Positions 5,390 through 33,346 of a stretch of DNA of 33,724 nucleotides are shown here, one piece after another. Under the pieces are notes generated by a model that saw only the letters and a program-made list of their open reading frames with translations, had not been told where the DNA came from and made no database searches. Every line of letters starts with the position of its first letter. The stretch's first letter is position 1. The DNA comes from a virus, in IMG/VR virus record IMGVR_UViG_3300048433_000266, positions 1-33,724 of that record. One strand, 5' to 3'. The translations under genes and the position numbers were made by a program.

Positions 5390-6886
5390 ATGGCAGTAAA
5401 CTATAACATACCGTTTCAGACGCAGCTCGACTATATGATGTACGAGCTGCAAGGGCCAGAAAGTCGGACAATGGACGCTTTCAAGTCTGCGGGCAATGTG
5501 ACGCCGCAAGACTATGCCGAGCTGTTTGAAAAAAAGTATGAACGCGCTGGCGGTCATGGCTTAGATCGTCGCAAGCAGTATGCGCTTGAAGTCTTTAAGA
5601 CGGCAGGCACAGACGCATTTAGCAATCTGCCGCAGAATGCACAAACTGCTTTTAACTACTTTAAAGGTAAAGGCTTCACTGACGCGCAAGCCGCAGGCAT
5701 CGTCGGCAACCTAATGACAGAAAGCTACGCGCAGATTGATCCGAATGCATACAACCCTGCTGGCGGCGGAATGGGTGCATACGGTATTGCTCAGTTTCGT
5801 GGGCCACGACTAAAAGGGCTGCTAGGTTTCGCTAGTACGCGAGGAGATCAAAGCATGGATGGAACACAACCAACAACAGCACAGCCAACACAAAAGCCGT
5901 CGCTGCTAGAACAGATGAAGCAGTCAACTGGCGGTCTGAAAGGTGTTTTGGATTTTGCAACCCAGCGCAATCCAGACACTGGACTATCAAAGTTTGAAAC
6001 ATTTGCGGCAGCTCTTGATCCGCTTATTCTGCCAAGCATGCGTGCAGGCTCAGCGATCCGAGAGCAGGGGCAGTCGCGGGTGCAAACAGGTCGTGTTAAT
6101 AAGACAGTTGAGTGGCTGAAAAAGAATGGCTACCCAGAGATTGCTGCGGCTGTTGAAGCTAATCCTCAGTCGGCTGCTAATGTGATGAGTTCCATTTTGT
6201 CTGAAAAGTTGGGCGGGCCGAAAACTAAGGTTGTTGATGGCAGGTTAATAAACGAAGCAACTGGTGAAGTTATTTACGGCGGTGATCCTGAAAAGCTAAA
6301 AACTCTTGACGATAAGCAATTTGGCATCGTGCGCAACTTGAGTAACGATCTTCTAAAAGGGTATAAAATTTATGATGAGGTTGCTAACGGATATGGCCTT
6401 ATCTCAAGCGCAATCAAAAACAAATCAGGTGTTGATGATTATGTTTTGACTGTCGCGTTTGCTAAAATCCTTGATCCTGAAAGTGTTGTTCGTGAAAGTG
6501 AGCAGGCTGCTGTCGCTCGTTCAGGCGGTGCGATTGATGCGTTTGTTAAAGACGTTCAGAACTTTATCGCTGGCACTGGCAACTTGCCAGAACCTGTCAG
6601 AAATCGGATTTATTCAACTGCTCAAAAGCGTGCAAAGTTCTACTTTGACAAAGCTAAACTTGAATATGACCGAGCCGTTAAAACCGCAGGCTTTGCAGGC
6701 ATTTCTCAAGAAATTATCAACGAGGTCATCCCAAAGCCGACACCTATGCCAAACTTCTCGCCCATCCCAACAGAAACAGATGTTGATGAGCCAGAAGACA
6801 CGAGAACGCAATCGGCTAAAGCTGCTGGCGTTACTATTAAGCAGTGGAACGCAATGTCAGCAGAAGATAAAGCACTATTCCCATAA
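5390..6886 (+). CDS. Internal virion protein with lysozyme-like domain (apparently permuted)
   Basis: 498 residues; ATG three bases after the upstream stop. Residues 83-148 match the first half of phage tail lysozyme domains: AFNYFKGKGFTDAQAAGIVG, then NLMTES with the expected catalytic Glu at 111, then GAYGIAQFRGPRL. Residues 8-72 match what is normally the second half of the same domain: QLDYMMYEL, FEKKYERAGG and RRKQYA. The two halves therefore appear in reversed order. The domain would cut peptidoglycan locally during DNA entry. Residues 150-490 are mixed helical with Pro-rich linkers (TTAQPTQKPS; PKPTPMPNFSPIPT) and no recognised domain. It sits between an Ala/Gln-rich core protein and a membrane-active protein, as expected for an ejection complex component. 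Confidence 0.7.
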   Translation: MAVNYNIPFQTQLDYMMYELQGPESRTMDAFKSAGNVTPQDYAELFEKKYERAGGHGLDRRKQYALEVFKTAGTDAFSNLPQNAQTAFNYFKGKGFTDAQAAGIVGNLMTESYAQIDPNAYNPAGGGMGAYGIAQFRGPRLKGLLGFASTRGDQSMDGTQPTTAQPTQKPSLLEQMKQSTGGLKGVLDFATQRNPDTGLSKFETFAAALDPLILPSMRAGSAIREQGQSRVQTGRVNKTVEWLKKNGYPEIAAAVEANPQSAANVMSSILSEKLGGPKTKVVDGRLINEATGEVIYGGDPEKLKTLDDKQFGIVRNLSNDLLKGYKIYDEVANGYGLISSAIKNKSGVDDYVLTVAFAKILDPESVVRESEQAAVARSGGAIDAFVKDVQNFIAGTGNLPEPVRNRIYSTAQKRAKFYFDKAKLEYDRAVKTAGFAGISQEIINEVIPKPTPMPNFSPIPTETDVDEPEDTRTQSAKAAGVTIKQWNAMSAEDKALFP

Positions 6887-6896
6887 GGACTGAAAA

Positions 6897-8858
6897 ATGA
6901 CACCAGAACAACAGGCCGCACTAGATAGAGCTAACGCAGCATTGGCAGAATTAGGCCAACAACCACAGGCGAATGTCGGAGCGGGTGTTGCTCGATCAGT
7001 AGCGTCTGGTTTAACATTCGGAGGCGCTGACGAAGCCGAAGCATACATTCGCAGCATTTTCGGTTCGCGTGAGTATGATGATCTGCTCAATGACATTCGC
7101 GGTCAGGTGGGCCAGTTTCAAGAACAGCGTCCAGGCTTGGCGTTAGGCTCTGAGCTTGCAGGTGCAACCTTGCCCGCTATTATTGCGTCGTTGTTCACTG
7201 GTGGCGCAGGCGGTGCTGTCGCGCTCGGCTCCCGCTATCCTATGCTGTCTGGCCTAGCTAAATCAGCAGGCATTGTTGCTCCTCGCACTTTAGCAGGCTC
7301 AGCAGGTTATGGCGCAGTGCAAGGTGCGGCGACAGGCTTTCTGTCTGGTGAAGGTGTAGAAGAGCGCATTCGCGGGTTAGCTACTGGCGGCGCTGTTGGC
7401 GCAGGTTTAGGCGCCGGGTTGGACATTGCAGCCAAGGCACTGCAAGGCACTCTCGGCAACTTCATGGATTACACGCGCAGAAAACTTGGCAACAAAGGCG
7501 GTTCGGCAGTTGAGCAAGAGTTGCAGCGCATAGCAGCCGAGGCAGGCATTACGCCTGAGCAAGCATATATTGAAGTCGCAGAAGGCCGATTGATGGCAGA
7601 AAACAAAACTCTGCAAGAGGCTGTTCGTGGATACTTTGATAAAGGTGGCCCAGGTGCTGCACTGCTTTCTGGCACTGCACGCACACGCCCAGGCGAACTG
7701 CGTAAAGAGCTTGTTGAGGATGTGCAGCAATATCTGACAGACGTTGCACCAGGCGCAAACTTCTTGCGCGATGAAGCTGATCGTATGAGCGATCTAGCAG
7801 ACGCAGCTCAAGATTTATATAATAGCCCATCAATGCAGCGCGCTATCTCAGAAAATGCTTTACCAATCATGAAAGACATCTTCCAGCGTGCGCCAGAAGC
7901 ATTCGCGGCAGTTCGTCGTGAGTTAGGCGTTGGTGGTAAAGAACTATTTTTTGAGTTGGCAGAGGATGGATCAGTGAATGTACTGCGTGCGCCAACGATC
8001 CAAGAGGCTGAAGTTGTTCGTCGTGCAATCAACGATCTAAAGGGGAAGTATTACAAATCTGGTGAGGGCGGCACAGCCAAGGCATACGGCGCATTGGAAC
8101 AAGAGTTGCGCGATGCTATTGATATGATTAGCGACGAAACTCAGCAGGCTCGTGCAACATACAACACAATGATGGATCAGGATAGAGCGTATAAAGCTGG
8201 TGAAAAGGCGTTCAAAGCAACTCCTGACGTTGATCAGATTGAGTTAGACATTGATCGTATTGCTGCGTTGGGAGACGAAGCATTGCGGGCTTATCGCACT
8301 GGCATCATGCGCAAACTGCGGATTGCAATGACAAGCAAGCGTGCAGCCTCGATTACAGCAGACCTTGCAAACCCAGACACAGCTTTGGGCCAGATGATGC
8401 AGCTTATATTCCCAGGGGAAGACATGAGTGATCTAGCGATGAAGCTGCAAACTCAAGAAGGTGCTGATGCACTTGTAAAAACAATTCTACTCAAGTCTCC
8501 AACTCAATCGTCAGGGCAGCAAATTGCACGACAAGGCGCAGGTGTTGGTGCAGAAGACATTGCAGAGGCGACAACCACCTTTGGCATGTTGCGCTTGCTA
8601 CGCAAGCTGACAGCACGCACACGCCCAGAACTGACAGACAGTCAGCGCGAGCAGGTCGTTCAAGCATTGTTGTCTCAAGACCCTGATTACATCAAGAGCA
8701 TGCTGCGTGATGAGAGCGGCATAGCAGTCATTCAGAACTTAATACAACGAGGCTCTGAGGCTCTCTATGCTGGCGGCAGAAGTGGTGCTATATATGGAAC
8801 AACAGAAAATGCACCGCAAACAGCCCAAGGCGTTCTTGGCATGATTGGCCCACAGTAA
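6897..8858 (+). CDS. Putative DNA-ejection protein with Gly-rich membrane segments
   Basis: 653 residues, ATG after AAGGACTGAAAA. An N-terminal helical part is followed by Gly/Ala-rich hydrophobic stretches at about residues 75-200 (for example GATLPAIIASLFTGGAGGAV and GGAVGAGLGAGLDIAAKAL). The texture resembles ejection proteins that insert into the host membrane. The rest is long amphipathic helix (PEAFAAVRREL, IQEAEVVRRAINDL, ARATYNTMMDQDRAYKAGEKAF), as in internal core and pilot proteins that form a trans-envelope conduit. It lies directly between the lysozyme-type protein and the portal gene. No enzyme motif was found. Function is inferred from composition and position; a purely structural head protein is the alternative. 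Confidence 0.6.
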   Translation: MTPEQQAALDRANAALAELGQQPQANVGAGVARSVASGLTFGGADEAEAYIRSIFGSREYDDLLNDIRGQVGQFQEQRPGLALGSELAGATLPAIIASLFTGGAGGAVALGSRYPMLSGLAKSAGIVAPRTLAGSAGYGAVQGAATGFLSGEGVEERIRGLATGGAVGAGLGAGLDIAAKALQGTLGNFMDYTRRKLGNKGGSAVEQELQRIAAEAGITPEQAYIEVAEGRLMAENKTLQEAVRGYFDKGGPGAALLSGTARTRPGELRKELVEDVQQYLTDVAPGANFLRDEADRMSDLADAAQDLYNSPSMQRAISENALPIMKDIFQRAPEAFAAVRRELGVGGKELFFELAEDGSVNVLRAPTIQEAEVVRRAINDLKGKYYKSGEGGTAKAYGALEQELRDAIDMISDETQQARATYNTMMDQDRAYKAGEKAFKATPDVDQIELDIDRIAALGDEALRAYRTGIMRKLRIAMTSKRAASITADLANPDTALGQMMQLIFPGEDMSDLAMKLQTQEGADALVKTILLKSPTQSSGQQIARQGAGVGAEDIAEATTTFGMLRLLRKLTARTRPELTDSQREQVVQALLSQDPDYIKSMLRDESGIAVIQNLIQRGSEALYAGGRSGAIYGTTENAPQTAQGVLGMIGPQ

Positions 8859-26261: not shown

Positions 26262-26744
26262 ATGGCGGGAAAGCAGTTAAAAAAGACAATACTTGCAGAC
26301 GTTGCCAAGAAGGGCGGCGCGGAATATGTGCGTGAGATGGCGTCTAGCATGACATTGAAGGCCTGGGCTGCTCAGGAGTGGCAATGCAGTCGCAACTACC
26401 TGAGCGAGACAATCCGCAGTGTTCCTGAGTATGCTCGTGCATTGGAGGGTGCGCAGTCGGTTTTAGCGGATGCCATGATGGAGGAGAATGTTGAGATTGC
26501 CGACAGCATTCCAGAGACTGCATCGAGTACGCAGATTGCGAAGGTTCGTGAGCAGATGCAGGCACGAAAGATGTTGGCTGCTGGGCTGAATAGGGATCGG
26601 TACGGTAGTGGCCCTCGTGCTGAGATTACTTTGAACTTGGGTGATCTGCACTTGGACGCCCTTAGGAAAATCAGCTCTGACCGCCAGGCATTGATGGCAG
26701 AGGATCGTGAGCGTGAGATGAAGGTGATTGAGCATGACGACTGA
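26262..26744 (+). CDS. Terminase small subunit
   Basis: 160 residues. Its identity rests on position just before the large subunit and on its build. A helix-turn-helix-like N-terminal part (MTLKAWAAQEWQCSRNYLSE, TIRSVPEYARALEGA) is followed by a long helical middle (VREQMQARKMLAAGLNRDRY) and a short beta-rich segment RAEITLNLGDLHLDALRKIS. Small terminases bind the packaging site and stimulate the large subunit; the DNA-binding half is the N-terminus. Ribosome site GAAGCGAGG precedes the ATG. It overlaps the large subunit start by 11 bases. Confidence 0.8.
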   Translation: MAGKQLKKTILADVAKKGGAEYVREMASSMTLKAWAAQEWQCSRNYLSETIRSVPEYARALEGAQSVLADAMMEENVEIADSIPETASSTQIAKVREQMQARKMLAAGLNRDRYGSGPRAEITLNLGDLHLDALRKISSDRQALMAEDREREMKVIEHDD

Positions 26745-28137
26745 GGCTAATCCATTTGAGGAGTTTACGTTACAGTACATGGATGACCCTGTGCTGTTCG
26801 TTAAGGAAGTGCTTGGTGCTGAGCCGCTGCCGTATCAGGTGGAGTTTTTGGAAGCGATTGCGGCGAATGAGCGGAAGATCAGCATTCGGTCTGGTCATGG
26901 TACTGGGAAGTCAACGAGCGCGAGTTGGGCGATGCTGTGGTTTTTGCTGATGCGTTTTCCTAATAAAGTGGTCGTCACTGCCCCAACGTCTGGTCAGTTG
27001 TTTGATGCATTGTTTGCGGAGCTAAAGCGGTGGATTGGTGAGTTGCCGAAGCCAGTACAAGATTTGCTGACAGTTAAGAGCGATCGAGTTGAGCTGACGG
27101 CTGCGCCTTCTGAGATGTTTATATCTGCCAGAACGTCGCGTGCAGAAACGCCAGAAGCCTTAGCGGGTGTACACAGTGATAATGTTCTTTTGGTCGTTGA
27201 CGAGGCGTCTGGTGTGCCTGAGAAGGTGTTTGAGGCGGCTGCTGGTTCTATGTCGGGCCACAGCGCCACGACTGTTCTTTTGAGCAACCCTACGCGATCA
27301 ACTGGTACGTTTTATGAGAGCCAGAATAGGATGTCTGGCAGTTGGTGGACGCGGCGATGGAGCTGCGTTGACAGTCCGTTGGTGTCTGATGAGTTCGTTG
27401 ACGAGATGCGTGAGCGGTATGGCGAGGAGAGCAATGCGTTTCGTATTAGGGTTTTGGGTGAGTTTCCGTTAGCGGACGATGACACGATTATTCCGTTTCA
27501 TTTGGTTGATGCGGCTATGAACAGAGATATTGAGGTGGACGAGGAGCGTCGGCCTGTCTGGGCTGTTGATCCTGCTCGATTTGGGACTGACAGGACTGCG
27601 TTTTGCAAGAGAGTTGGGAGTGTTATTACTGAGATTAAGTCGTGGCGTGGCTTGGACTTGATGCAGACTGTTGGTCGTGTGATGGCGGAGTATGAGGCTC
27701 TAAATCCGAGCAATAGACCGTCAGAAATCTTGGTTGACAGCATTGGTGTGGGTTCTGGCGTTGTTGATCGTTTGAGGGAGCTTGGGGCGCCTGTGAGGGG
27801 TGTGAATGTGGCTGAAAGTCCGTCTATGGGCGAGACGTACAATAATTTGAGAACTGAGCTGTGGTTTAAGACAAAGGCGTGGCTTGAGGATCGTTCTTGC
27901 AAATTGCCGCAAGATGATGAGTTGTTGGCTGATCTGACAGGTATACGGTACTCGTTTACGTCGTCTGGCAAGATGGCGGCTGAGGGGAAGGATCAGATGA
28001 GGCGCAGAGGATTAAGATCGCCTGACTTGGCAGATGCAGTTTGCTTGACAATGGCGTCTGACGCGGCGATGGCGCTGTCTGGGCCTATGAGTACATGGAG
28101 AGGCGAGCTGAGAAGGAATTTGCGCGGTATTGCGTAG
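26734..28137 (+). CDS. Terminase large subunit
   Basis: 467 residues from ATG 26734; a TTG six bases earlier is possible but AAGGTG is better spaced for the ATG. ATPase motifs: LPYQVEFLEAIA (Q-like motif), RSGHGTGKSTSAS (Walker A), VVVTAPTSGQ, VLLVVDEASGVPEKVF (Walker B plus Glu), TTVLLSNPTRSTGTFY (coupling motif III). The nuclease domain shows AVDPARFGTDRTAFCKR, EILVDSIGVGSGVVDRL and the last catalytic acidic residue in RSPDLADAVCLTM. It is an intact motor and nuclease for packaging headful or cos-ended DNA into the procapsid through the portal. Homology to P22-like or SU10-like large terminases is likely. Confidence 0.93.
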   Translation: MTTEANPFEEFTLQYMDDPVLFVKEVLGAEPLPYQVEFLEAIAANERKISIRSGHGTGKSTSASWAMLWFLLMRFPNKVVVTAPTSGQLFDALFAELKRWIGELPKPVQDLLTVKSDRVELTAAPSEMFISARTSRAETPEALAGVHSDNVLLVVDEASGVPEKVFEAAAGSMSGHSATTVLLSNPTRSTGTFYESQNRMSGSWWTRRWSCVDSPLVSDEFVDEMRERYGEESNAFRIRVLGEFPLADDDTIIPFHLVDAAMNRDIEVDEERRPVWAVDPARFGTDRTAFCKRVGSVITEIKSWRGLDLMQTVGRVMAEYEALNPSNRPSEILVDSIGVGSGVVDRLRELGAPVRGVNVAESPSMGETYNNLRTELWFKTKAWLEDRSCKLPQDDELLADLTGIRYSFTSSGKMAAEGKDQMRRRGLRSPDLADAVCLTMASDAAMALSGPMSTWRGELRRNLRGIA

Positions 28138-28460: not shown

Positions 28461-28721
28461 ATGGCGAAAGACCCTAAACTGAGCCGTGTTGGTGTTTCTG
28501 GTTATAACAAGCCAAAGAGAACGCCGAGCCATCCGACAAAGAGCCATGTTGTCGTGGCGAAAGATGGAGACAAGGTGAAGACAATACGGTTTGGGCAGCA
28601 GGGCAAGACAGGCGATAAAACGATGACAAAGCGTGCAAAGTCGTTTAAAGCGCGTCATGCAAAGAACATTGCCAAAGGCAAGATGTCTGCGGCGTATTGG
28701 GCGAATAAGGTTAAGTGGTAG
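28461..28721 (+). CDS. Small basic phage protein, second member
   Basis: 86 residues, MAKDPKLSRVGVSGYNKPKR, then a middle with a short strand (HVVVAKDGDKVKTIRFGQQG) and a C-terminal block FKARHAKNIAKGKMSAAYWA followed by NKVKW. The last block is a conserved pattern of small phage proteins in my memory: a basic helix followed by an aromatic Trp-containing end. The function is unknown. It follows the previous tiny gene by a few bases, and the next gene starts one base after its stop, so all are likely in one transcript with the terminase. Confidence 0.7.
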   Translation: MAKDPKLSRVGVSGYNKPKRTPSHPTKSHVVVAKDGDKVKTIRFGQQGKTGDKTMTKRAKSFKARHAKNIAKGKMSAAYWANKVKW

Positions 28722-30434
28722 ATGGCGACACCTGACGAGATACGCCGAGCGCGAGAGCAATCGAGCATTTTTGGCAATTTGTTTGATTATGTGCGTGCCA
28801 ATGAGGCGCAACTTGCGTCAGAAGGTCGTCGGCCTGTTTTGGGTGGATTGCTGTCAAAAGAGCCTGTGATGGGAACTGACACGATCCGCTATGAGGGACT
28901 TGGCCCTATGTTGGCAGGGCTGCTTGAGCCGTTGGCGCGTGGCGTTGATGCACCTCGCGCTGCGGCTCAGGGTCTAATACCGCAAGAGGATATGATTGGC
29001 GAGGCGTTTGGCACTGCTGGGACTGCCATGCTTGGTGGCGGTGCGGTTGCTAAGCCTGCGGGGGCTTTAGGTGCGAATACACTGCGCGTTTATCATGGTG
29101 GTGATTATAGGTATGGCGATGACATAAATGCTCCATTTTTTGTCACGCCAGATCGTAAAGGTGCAGAGTATTTTGCGCCAGATGATGTGCCTTTTAGTTC
29201 GGTTTCAAACTTTGAGGCAGATTTAAGCAATGCACTTGATATAGATACGCTAGCAGGTCAGGCTCAATTGTCTGAGATATTGACTAAGTACGGGATTGAG
29301 CATGACTACAATCCTGACAGTGTTTATGAAAAGATTGACATTTATGATGTGCCTGATGATGTGTCGTATGACGGCACAAACTTGCTTGATGCTGCGTACA
29401 TTCCAGAAGTTCAAGACGCTTTGAAGAAAGAGGGCGTGAGCGCACTTTACAGTTCGGCAGACGCACTAGAGAACTCAAGCATTCCAGCTTATGCAGTTGT
29501 TGACCCTACTATTTTGGGCGCCAACGCTTCAAAAAGCTCGGGCCTTTTATCAGTTGCGTCAGACGTATCCGCACGCGGCGATCAGATATTAAACATGCTA
29601 AAGTCTGGCAGAGGGTCGGAGGTTACTGACGCGATGCTAGATATGGGCGACGGCGTAAAAAATACGCAGTTAAATCAGTACCTTGCAGCAAATTATGATT
29701 TGCCTATGGACGAGGCAAGCCGATTGGCTCGTGCGCGTGAGATGGGGTTTGAGGGCGGCTTGCTGCATGGCACTGGTTCAGACATCACTGCGGTTGATCC
29801 AGCAAAGCTCGGTGGAAAGCAGAATGTTTTGGGCAAGGGGTTTTATCAAACAACTAATCCGCAAAGATCAGATCGTTATGTTCCAAAGGTAAAAGATGAC
29901 GATGGTAGCTTGATTTTTGCAGAAGGTGGCAATGTCATGCCTCTTATGACTAAAAGCGCAGATGAGTTTGATTTGACTGTTCCGACAGGCAAGGAAAACA
30001 TCACGCGCATTGCGAACGCTTTTGAAGGGTCTGATTATGACGTTGAGTTGCGCGATGGCGGCGACAGTGTGTTTATTCAAAGTAAAACAGACCCAAGCGC
30101 GTCGGTCTTTCTTGATAGTTATGCAGAAGGGCAAAATACACTAATGCGTCTGAAAGATGCGTTCGGAAACAACAATATTACCCCAATTCTGCAAGAGGCT
30201 GGATTTACTGGCGTTAAGGGCGTTGAGAGCAGAGGCAGCAATGTGCGTGTAAATTATAACCCGCAAGATGTGCGCACACAATTTGCCAGGTTTGATCCTC
30301 GACTATCTCACTTGTCAAACGTCACAGCAGCCAACGCCTCACCAATAAGTGGCCTTTTGGCGCAATCTGGTGTATCAAGTGAGCAAGCTCAGAGAATAGA
30401 AGACTATCTGTATAGGACAGGATTGTTACAGTAA
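28722..30434 (+). CDS. Protein with two ADP-ribosyltransferase-like domains
   Basis: 570 residues. Domain 1 (about 119-265): TLRVYHGGDYRYGDDINAPF then FVTPDRKGAEYFAP with His 125, and VVDPTIL near its end. Domain 2 (about 328-530): MDEASRLARAREMGFEGGLL, HGTGSDITAVDP with His 349, LGKGFYQTTNPQRSDRYVP with Tyr 375, and the end block GFTGVKGVESRGSNVRVNYN then QDVRTQFARFDP. This matches the ART domain of phage polyvalent proteins, where the HGT and lGkGfY motifs bind NAD and the C-terminal block is diagnostic. It could modify host proteins after entry or act inside the virion. It overlaps the adaptor gene by one base. Confidence 0.72.
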   Translation: MATPDEIRRAREQSSIFGNLFDYVRANEAQLASEGRRPVLGGLLSKEPVMGTDTIRYEGLGPMLAGLLEPLARGVDAPRAAAQGLIPQEDMIGEAFGTAGTAMLGGGAVAKPAGALGANTLRVYHGGDYRYGDDINAPFFVTPDRKGAEYFAPDDVPFSSVSNFEADLSNALDIDTLAGQAQLSEILTKYGIEHDYNPDSVYEKIDIYDVPDDVSYDGTNLLDAAYIPEVQDALKKEGVSALYSSADALENSSIPAYAVVDPTILGANASKSSGLLSVASDVSARGDQILNMLKSGRGSEVTDAMLDMGDGVKNTQLNQYLAANYDLPMDEASRLARAREMGFEGGLLHGTGSDITAVDPAKLGGKQNVLGKGFYQTTNPQRSDRYVPKVKDDDGSLIFAEGGNVMPLMTKSADEFDLTVPTGKENITRIANAFEGSDYDVELRDGGDSVFIQSKTDPSASVFLDSYAEGQNTLMRLKDAFGNNNITPILQEAGFTGVKGVESRGSNVRVNYNPQDVRTQFARFDPRLSHLSNVTAANASPISGLLAQSGVSSEQAQRIEDYLYRTGLLQ

Positions 30435-31054
30435 TGGCACTTACAACCTATGATGAATTAAAAGCAAGCATTGCGGATTTTCTGAACCGCGATGATTTAA
30501 CGTCTGTTATTCCTGATTTTATTTCGTTGGCTGAAGCTGACATGAATAGAGGCTTGCGTCACTGGCGTCAGGAAAAGCGCAGCACGGCAGAGATTGACAC
30601 GCAGTACAGTGCAATGCCTGCTGACTTTCTTGAGGTTATTAGCTTTCACATTAGCTCTGGCGATTATCGCAGCTTAGAGTTAGTCAGCAAGGCGCAAATG
30701 CAAGATCGTCGGTATAAGTCTGGCGACACATCTGGCAAGCCTGCGTTTTACGCGATTACTGCTGGTGAGATTGAAGTTTACCCAACGCCTGATGGGACGT
30801 ACAACGCAGAGCTTTACTACTACTCACGGATTACTGCGTTGTCTGACAGTGATACGTCAAACTGGGTTTTGGAGTATTTCCCTGACGCGTATTTGTATGG
30901 TGCGCTTGTGCATTCTAGCCCTTACCTTAAAGAGGACGCGCGCACTCAGGTTTGGGCATCGTTGTACGCAAACGCGATCAGTGCTATAAATGCGGAAAGC
31001 GAAAAGTCTAAATTTGGCGGTTCAGGACGCCGCATGCGTATTCGCAGCTATTAA
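30434..31054 (+). CDS. Head-tail adaptor (SU10-like)
   Basis: 206 residues, ATG overlapping the previous stop. Pattern of the SU10-type adaptor family: MALTTYDELKASIADFLNRD, VIPDFISLAEADMNRGLRHW, YSAMPADFLEVISF, RSLELVSKAQMQDRRYKSGD, FYAITAGEIEVYPTPDGTYN, and a C-terminal AYLYGALVHSSPYLKEDART followed by VWASLYANAISAINAES. Adaptors bind the portal ring and close the head before the tail attaches. Together with portal and capsid of the same type this defines the virion lineage. Its stop overlaps the stop of an antisense homing endonuclease (TTAA). Confidence 0.88.
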   Translation: MALTTYDELKASIADFLNRDDLTSVIPDFISLAEADMNRGLRHWRQEKRSTAEIDTQYSAMPADFLEVISFHISSGDYRSLELVSKAQMQDRRYKSGDTSGKPAFYAITAGEIEVYPTPDGTYNAELYYYSRITALSDSDTSNWVLEYFPDAYLYGALVHSSPYLKEDARTQVWASLYANAISAINAESEKSKFGGSGRRMRIRSY

Positions 31055-31617
31055 CGCCTGCCATGATTAGGGTGGAAGCCGTACTTGGCTTCTGCCTCTT
31101 TCCTTGCAGTGATAGCATCATTTTTATCCGCAAAACTTCCAAGGTGTACTAGCCTTCCATTAGCAGATATTGTGCATACCCATCTGCATGTTTTTTTAAC
31201 AAAGTAAACCCCTGTGTAGCCGCTACTGTTGTCGCTTCTAATCGCTCTGTTCATGTTGTTTTCTTTGCTGCTGACAGCTCGCAAATTTGAAATTCTATTG
31301 TCACTTCTAATTCCATTGATGTGGTCAATTTGGTTAATTGGGGCCGCTCCATAAAACATTGTCCATATAATGCGGTGAGCAGAGTACACTTTTTTAAAAA
31401 TCAATCCATTGCGATACCCTTTGCCATCGTCAGCGGTAAACGCTTCCTTTCCCGCAAGTCTGCTATTCCATTGTACACAAGCATGTTTTGCGCTTCTTTT
31501 TTCTGTTGTATTAAAGAAGGAAATATCGCGCTCTTTCCAATACAGTTTTCCTGTGTCTGGTTCATAGCGAAGCAGTTGACGTAATAGTTCTGGGGATGGT
31601 AGTTCTTTTTTAGACAT
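31051..31617 (-). CDS. HNH-AP2 homing endonuclease (antisense copy)
   Basis: 188 residues with AAGGAGGCCGAA before the ATG. An N-terminal 35-residue block (LLRQLLRYEPDTGKLYWKER), then VYSAHRIIWTMFYG, the HNH core QIDHINGIRSDNRISNLRAV, and a C-terminal AP2-like DNA-binding domain (SGYTGVYFVKKTCRWVCTIS, HLGSFADKNDAITARKEAEA, then FHPNHG). This is a free-standing homing nuclease that copies itself into new sites. It lies opposite to the adaptor and tail genes, between them, and shares sequence with the sense copy at 32846-33346. Confidence 0.9.
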   Translation of the reverse strand: MSKKELPSPELLRQLLRYEPDTGKLYWKERDISFFNTTEKRSAKHACVQWNSRLAGKEAFTADDGKGYRNGLIFKKVYSAHRIIWTMFYGAAPINQIDHINGIRSDNRISNLRAVSSKENNMNRAIRSDNSSGYTGVYFVKKTCRWVCTISANGRLVHLGSFADKNDAITARKEAEAKYGFHPNHGRR

Positions 31618-32845: not shown

Positions 32846-33346
32846 ATGATAACGCAAAAGCGATTAAAAGATGTTTTGGAGTATGACGCCGATACTGGCG
32901 TTTTCACATGGCGCTTTGGTAGGCCAAAGGCAAAGGCTGGGTCTATTGCTGGAGGTAAAAACTGGAAGGGTTATTGGTTAATTTGCGTGGATGGTAAGAG
33001 GTATCGCGCCCATCGTCTCGCATGGCTTTACGTTTATGGCTTAATGCCTAAGCGTCAAATTGACCACATCAACCACGACAGATTGGATAATCGCATTGAT
33101 AATTTACGCGAAGTTACAAACGCAGAAAACCACAAGAATGTAAAATTAGCGTCAAACAATAAGTCTGGTTATTCTGGCGTTAGCTTTTGTAAATTAAAGC
33201 AGAAGTGGACCGCGCGGATAAAGGACGGTGCGGTTTACAGAAACTTGGGTTATTTTGTGGATAAAATGGATGCTGTTTCCGCGCGGGATGCGGCGAAGGT
33301 AAAACTTGGGTATCACCCTAATCACGGATTGCCGAAGGAGGCATAA
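32846..33346 (+). CDS. HNH-AP2 homing endonuclease (sense copy)
   Basis: 166 residues, MITQKRLKDVLEYDADTGVF, then TWRFGRPKAKAGSIAGGKNW, AHRLAWLYVYG, HNH core QIDHINHDRLDNRIDNLREV, and AP2 part SGYSGVSFCKLKQKWTARIK, GYFVDKMDAVSARDAAKVKL, YHPNHG. This is clearly related to the antisense gene at 31051-31617 (same HNH-AP2 order, same HPNHG end). It is placed between two tail genes with normal ribosome sites on both sides, so it probably does not interrupt them. It is likely a mobile element of phage origin. Confidence 0.9.
   Translation: MITQKRLKDVLEYDADTGVFTWRFGRPKAKAGSIAGGKNWKGYWLICVDGKRYRAHRLAWLYVYGLMPKRQIDHINHDRLDNRIDNLREVTNAENHKNVKLASNNKSGYSGVSFCKLKQKWTARIKDGAVYRNLGYFVDKMDAVSARDAAKVKLGYHPNHGLPKEA

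What the first reader, a model, noticed from the sequence alone, without database searches (positions are those of the whole stretch)
28722..30434. Two ADP-ribosyltransferase-like domains in one virion-region protein
The protein has two separate HG(G/T) NAD-site motifs (His 125 and His 349), and the second domain carries lGkGfY and the diagnostic C-terminal VRxxxARFDP block of ART domains in phage polyvalent proteins. Tandem ARTs are unusual, and the gene sits between terminase and adaptor, where virion proteins are encoded. It might be packaged and injected to modify host proteins, like T4 Alt, but with a different architecture.
Basis: partly seen in the sequence, partly recalled or inferred. 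Interest (0 to 1): 0.75.

Follow-up and report, generated by a model that had tools for sequence, protein, structure and literature searches.

The report
Phage effector with swappable ADP-ribosyltransferase slots
A gene of a short-tailed marine-type phage, lying among its virion genes, encodes a small modular protein with two ADP-ribosyltransferase-fold domains held in two 'slots' whose contents are exchanged between related phages, probably an injected host-modifying effector of an already described kind.

Summary
The 570-aa ORF is real. Neither Pfam, PHROGs nor the PDB matches its sequence directly. Relatives, predicted structures and profile comparison make both domains ART folds. D2 belongs with ART-PolyVal (35 of 75 relatives hit PF18760). 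D1 is a divergent ART with Phe in place of the active-site Tyr. The best structural neighbour of both domains is a protein of the cyanophage A4 pre-ejectosome.

'Tandem ARTs are unusual' is wrong: polyvalent proteins with up to 12 ARTs are published, as is the terminase/portal neighbourhood. The new part is the architecture. A leader, a 77-aa linker and a 49-aa tail are conserved. They frame two slots whose contents are swapped among close relatives (ART variants, ParB-like, GNAT, peptidase, nothing). Window, L001 and L002 share slots in incompatible combinations, so recombination is shown. Some cassettes are 85-95% identical at DNA level where flanking DNA is 65-80%. Both domains are under strong purifying selection (dN/dS 0.05-0.07).

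Most likely it is a virion-packaged, ejected effector, an ART-bearing member of the polyvalent-protein class. Packaging, injection, catalysis and targets are inferred, not shown.

The parts
28722..29078 (+). Conserved leader (res 1-119), Gly/Ala-rich, ending ..LIPQEDMIGEAFGTAGTAMLGGGAVAKPAGALGAN
   Evidence: 76-95% identical in close relatives; an alternative leader type in L002/L005/L006/L007
29079..29519 (+). Slot 1: D1 (res 120-266), divergent ART-fold domain; H125 present, F140 at the Tyr position
   Evidence: AF2 pLDDT 66, pTM 0.67; VIA Z 8.1 to 9k3a_B, then ART toxins/PARPs; profile match to D2 prob 96, E 2e-9; 46% identical cassette in L033
29520..29750 (+). Linker (res 267-343): ANASKSSGLL.. 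to ..LPMDEASRLARAREMGF, helical lead-in to D2
   Evidence: 83-97% identical to the window in nine near relatives with different slots, 70% in L012; DNA homology resumes at 29496-29520 and stops at 29750
29751..30284 (+). Slot 2: D2 (res 344-521), ART-PolyVal-type domain: H349, D354, GFY 373-375
   Evidence: AF2 pLDDT 80; Foldseek 9k3a_B E 9e-5 prob 1.00; BFVD ART-PolyVal proteins E 1.5e-8; L003 slot 2 hits PF18760 E 1.8e-9
30285..30431 (+). Conserved tail (res 522-570): ARFDPRLSHLSN..AANASPISGLLAQ..EDYLYRTGLLQ
   Evidence: 78-94% identical to the window in near relatives; DNA homology resumes at 30289-30291
26728..28137 (+). Terminase large subunit (first ATG slightly downstream of the listed TTG)
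   Evidence: PHROG terminase hits; TerL found upstream of the gene in 33 of 54 relatives with 2.5 kb upstream sequence
28461..28721 (+). 86-aa protein (phrog_7595), probable partner
   Evidence: within 700 bases upstream in 23 of 73 relatives; fused to a CHAP+ART protein in L099
30434..31054 (+). SU10-type head-tail adaptor
   Evidence: PF24175 E 7.6e-40; downstream in 35 of 75 relatives

Best explanation
The gene encodes a compact modular effector protein of a podophage. Three conserved pieces (leader, linker, tail) form a constant carrier. Two variable slots between them hold exchangeable catalytic cassettes, here an ART-fold domain in each. The protein is probably made late with the terminase and tail genes, packaged in or at the capsid/portal, ejected with the DNA, and uses NAD+ through D2 (H349, Y375) to ADP-ribosylate host macromolecules early in infection. 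D1 is a second, divergent ART whose activity is uncertain (Tyr replaced by Phe). Relatives keep the carrier and change the cargo (other ARTs, ParB-like, GNAT, peptidase or none) by recombination at the conserved boundaries, as expected of an arms-race effector. Shown: ORF, homology, ART folds by prediction, slot exchange, purifying selection, synteny. Inferred: packaging, injection, catalysis, target.
For: ART fold: D2 model matches the cyanophage A4 pre-ejectosome chain 9k3a_B (Foldseek E 9e-5, prob 1.00; VIA Z 9.2 over 158 residues), then PARPs, ExoA and cholix at Z 6-7. In BFVD it matches proteins named ART-PolyVal (E 1.5e-8). D1 model: VIA Z 8.1 over 140 residues to the same chain, then ART toxins and PARPs; Foldseek top hit is an anti-CRISPR structure, then mostly PARPs and diphtheria toxin, all with E above 0.001. 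D1 and D2 profiles match (prob 96, E 2e-9); shuffled controls reach prob 2 at most. Family: 35 of 75 relatives hit PF18760. Slots: the linker is 83-97% identical to the window in nine near relatives while slot 1 is 16-37% alike between types and slot 2 is either about 30% or 91-98%; breakpoints 29750 and 30289-30291. Window and L001 share slot 1 but not slot 2; window and L002 share slot 2 but not slot 1. Cassettes are closer than their flanks: L010/L028 95% vs 80% TerL, L006/L037 85% vs 65%. Context: TerL upstream, adaptor or portal downstream; syntenic gp6 in OANV2, a TEM-confirmed podovirus (PMC9239159). Some relatives carry peptidoglycan-enzyme domains, CHAP and M15. dN/dS 0.05-0.07.
Against: No virion proteomics or activity data were found for any member. 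The window protein itself has no Pfam hit. The third, acidic active-site residue could not be placed: D525 of ARFDP lies past the last modelled strand, and D1 lacks that block. D1's model is of modest confidence (7 sequences), and part of its similarity to other cassettes comes from shared boundary sequence.
Confidence: 0.66

Rival explanations
1. The ART folds are mainly structural: the protein is an ejectosome or head-interior component in which ART-fold modules act as scaffolding or binding domains without catalysis.
For: The nearest solved structure for both domains is a pre-ejectosome protein. D1 has Phe at the Tyr position and no ARFDP block. Several D2 relatives have lost the His (45 of 50 keep it).
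Against: H349 and GFY are kept in the window, both domains evolve under strong constraint, and the same slots carry unrelated enzyme domains (GNAT, ParB-like, peptidase), which fits cargo better than scaffold.
Confidence: 0.18
2. The protein is not packaged. It is made late in the infected cell and acts there, for example against host defence or superinfecting phages.
For: No packaging signal or proteomic evidence. PMC9503650 itself offers countering immune processes that target the packaging apparatus as an alternative reading of such neighbourhoods.
Against: Position between TerL and adaptor or portal in many relatives, cell-wall hydrolase cassettes in some relatives, closest fold in an ejectosome.
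Confidence: 0.13
3. The HG motifs are chance and the domains are not ARTs.
For: No direct Pfam, PHROGs or PDB sequence hit for the window protein.
Confidence: 0.03

Closest known systems
Polyvalent proteins with ART-PolyVal (Tox-ART-HYD2-like) domains, Iyer et al. 2017, PMC5512222
   Same: ART-PolyVal-type domain; the relatives' slot contents (GNAT, ParB-like, peptidases, LPD23, CHAP) are drawn from the same kind of domain set; late/virion gene context; tandem ARTs already known (up to 12)
   Different: Compact (371-906 aa in the close group), constant leader/linker/tail framing two exchangeable slots; the window copy combines two ARTs rather than disparate activities; cassette exchange shown between close relatives rather than suggested
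Cyanophage A4 pre-ejectosome protein, PDB 9k3a chain B (title; Hou et al. 2025 PNAS, cited in PMC12810830, text not held)
   Same: Best structural match of both D1 and D2; short-tailed phage; inside the virion
   Different: Chain of 1071 modelled residues; no sequence match found to it; that the matched region is an ART is my inference
T4 Alt
   Same: Proposed mode: packaged ART injected to modify host proteins
   Different: R-S-E active site (PMC5512222) against H-Y here; different family and genome context
MuF polymorphic toxins of phages (PMC5576092, from its abstract and title only)
   Same: Phage structural carrier with variable toxin domains
   Different: No MuF domain detected here; variability lies in two internal slots flanked by constant regions, not only at the C-terminus

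Membership tests
ART-PolyVal (PF18760), for D2 | ART fold | tested here: met
ART-PolyVal (PF18760), for D2 | Sequence relation to the family | tested here: met
   Indirect: no hit for the window itself, but L003 slot 2 E 1.8e-9 above cut-off and L005 slot 2 (58% identical to window slot 2) 31.0 bits against cut-off 31.2
ART-PolyVal (PF18760), for D2 | His in strand 1 and Tyr in strand 2 | tested here: met
   H349 in model strand 71-78, Y375 in model strand 100-104
ART-PolyVal (PF18760), for D2 | Asp in strand 5 | tested here: inconclusive
   No conserved acid found in the last strands; D354 and D525 conserved but elsewhere; no coordinates to check geometry
ART-PolyVal (PF18760), for D1 | His in strand 1 and Tyr in strand 2 | tested here: not met
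   H125 present, but F140 aligns with Y375. D1 is called ART-fold, not ART-PolyVal
ADP-ribosyltransferase fold, for D1 | ART fold | tested here: met
   model confidence modest
Polyvalent proteins | Domains of disparate activity in one polypeptide | tested here: inconclusive
   Window copy has two ARTs; close relatives combine ART with GNAT, ParB-like or peptidase
Polyvalent proteins | Injected with the DNA | not testable with these tools
   Gene context only
T4 Alt (Alt/VIP2 ARTs) | R-S-E active site | tested here: not met
   H-Y motifs in D2

The most novel reading that the evidence does not exclude
The constant leader, linker and tail are a dedicated virion-loading chassis with two docking slots. 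Podophages of this group swap injected enzymes in and out of it by recombination at fixed boundaries, making it a natural two-cartridge protein-delivery system.
Probability: 0.35. Interest if true: 0.7.

Novelty: new variant of a known kind. Interest (0 to 1): 0.45.

Why it matters
Cassette exchange in phage-injected effectors had been suggested for polyvalent proteins (PMC5512222). Here it can be read directly, with boundaries to within tens of bases, between close relatives. It gives a small protein in which to ask what loads such effectors into virions and what the ART domains modify, and it has an isolated phage-host pair (OANV2/Octadecabacter, gp6) for the test.

Tried and rejected
Direct Pfam, PHROGs and PDB sequence searches of the protein: no usable hit (the dual-specificity phosphatase hits at E 0.05 were taken as chance). 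Genome contigs: no relative. Plasmids: no meaningful relative. A second copy of the gene in the window, e.g. the 653-aa gene before the portal: not a homologue. Profile search of the PDB sequences gave only weak PARP10 hits for D2 (E 0.57) and unrelated hits for D1. I considered that shared boundary sequence alone made D1 look like an ART; a narrower alignment without the other cassettes still matched D2 (prob 54-71, E 4e-5 to 1e-4) against shuffled maxima of prob 2. The counts of TerL and adaptor neighbours depend on a two-step profile search from the window and include near-duplicate contigs.

Full report
WHAT IS THERE. The window is a 33.7 kb virus record. Its gene order matches the isolated podovirus Octadecabacter Antarctic DB virus 2: terminase, ART gene and adaptor/tail tubular, then further on lysozyme, portal, scaffold and capsid (morphology from PMC9239159). 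The finding's ORF encodes 570 aa.

RELATIVES. The whole protein finds 18 viral contigs and gp6 of that phage. The leader finds 35 loci. The linker plus D2 finds 159, of which 80 were kept. Of 75 relatives scanned, 35 hit Pfam ART-PolyVal (best E 1e-30). Others carry LPD23, GNAT, ParB-like, M15 or other peptidase, CHAP or ASCH domains. This is the kind of domain set described for the polyvalent proteins of Iyer et al. 2017 (PMC5512222).

TWO ART FOLDS. D2 (residues 274-570 modelled, pLDDT 80) matches 9k3a_B of the cyanophage A4 pre-ejectosome (E 9e-5, prob 1.00; Z 9.2), then PARPs, ExoA, cholix and diphtheria toxin. Against viral models it matches ART-PolyVal proteins. D1 (pLDDT 66) has the same best VIA match (Z 8.1), followed by ART toxins and PARPs. 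Middling Z values alone would not be decisive, but the lists are almost all ARTs. The D1 and D2 profiles also match each other (prob 96, E 2e-9), while 59 column-shuffled controls reach at most prob 2. In that alignment D1's F140 faces D2's Y375, and D1 has no ARFDP block. D2 keeps H349, D354 and GFY. The family's third residue, Asp in strand 5, could not be placed.

TWO SLOTS. Near relatives share the linker at 83-97% and the tail at 78-94% identity with the window (linker 70%, tail 82% in L012). Slot 1 is 16-37% alike between types, and slot 2 falls into types about 30% alike between them and 91-98% within. At DNA level, homology to seven relatives stops at 29750 and resumes at 30281-30342, in five of them at 30289-30291. 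Slot 1 is bounded at about 29062-29101 and 29496-29520 where leaders match. Slot 1 contents seen: the window's D1, two other ART-like types, a ParB-like domain, GNAT-like domains, peptidase-like segments, or nothing. The window shares D1 with L001 but D2 with L002, a combination that requires recombination. Cassettes L010/L028 are 95% identical at DNA level with TerL at 80%; L006/L037 are 85% with TerL at 65%. D1 itself sits before the adaptor in the window but before the portal, with a different C-terminal half, in L033.

CONTEXT AND SELECTION. TerL lies upstream in 33 of 54 relatives with enough sequence, the adaptor downstream in 35 of 75, and the portal directly downstream in about 19 by my count. 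dN/dS is 0.07 (D1, against L001) and 0.05 (D2, against L002).

MECHANISM. The evidence fits a carrier with exchangeable enzymes, delivered at infection, with D2 the likely ADP-ribosyltransferase. Delivery, catalysis and target are inference from context and from published proposals (PMC5512222, PMC9503650). The main rival is a structural ejectosome role.

VERDICT. The claim of unusual tandem ARTs does not. The interest lies in the two-slot exchange, a new variant of a known kind.

Noticed in passing
28461-28721: 86-aa protein (phrog_7595, C-terminus FKARHAKNIAKGKMSAAYWANKVKW) shared by Roseobacter phages including SIO1 and CRP, cyanophages and HMO-2011; fused to a CHAP plus ART protein in L099. 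Its domain also matches part of phrog_220 'minor head protein and DNA pilot'. Possible virion-targeting domain.
   Followed up: partly
31051-31617 (-) and 32846-33346 (+): Two HNH_3 endonuclease ORFs (one with a weak AP2 match) near the tail genes, of homing-endonuclease type; they might promote the local recombination seen in this region.
   Followed up: no
L033/L034/L037/L029-L031: Relatives with a conserved C-terminal half (PLTKEQLDPLGYQKTKMRR..) that is not an ART and lies directly before the portal gene; no Pfam match seen for that half in L033.
   Followed up: partly
5390-8858: Phage_lysozyme2 protein (5390-6886, PF18013 E 4e-25) and a 653-aa protein (6897-8858) just before the portal; likely ejection proteins.
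   Followed up: no
L005:3642-6359: 906-aa relative with extra modules, each ending in an ANASK-x-x-G-[LA]-L boundary; suggests the boundary repeats when modules are added.
   Followed up: partly
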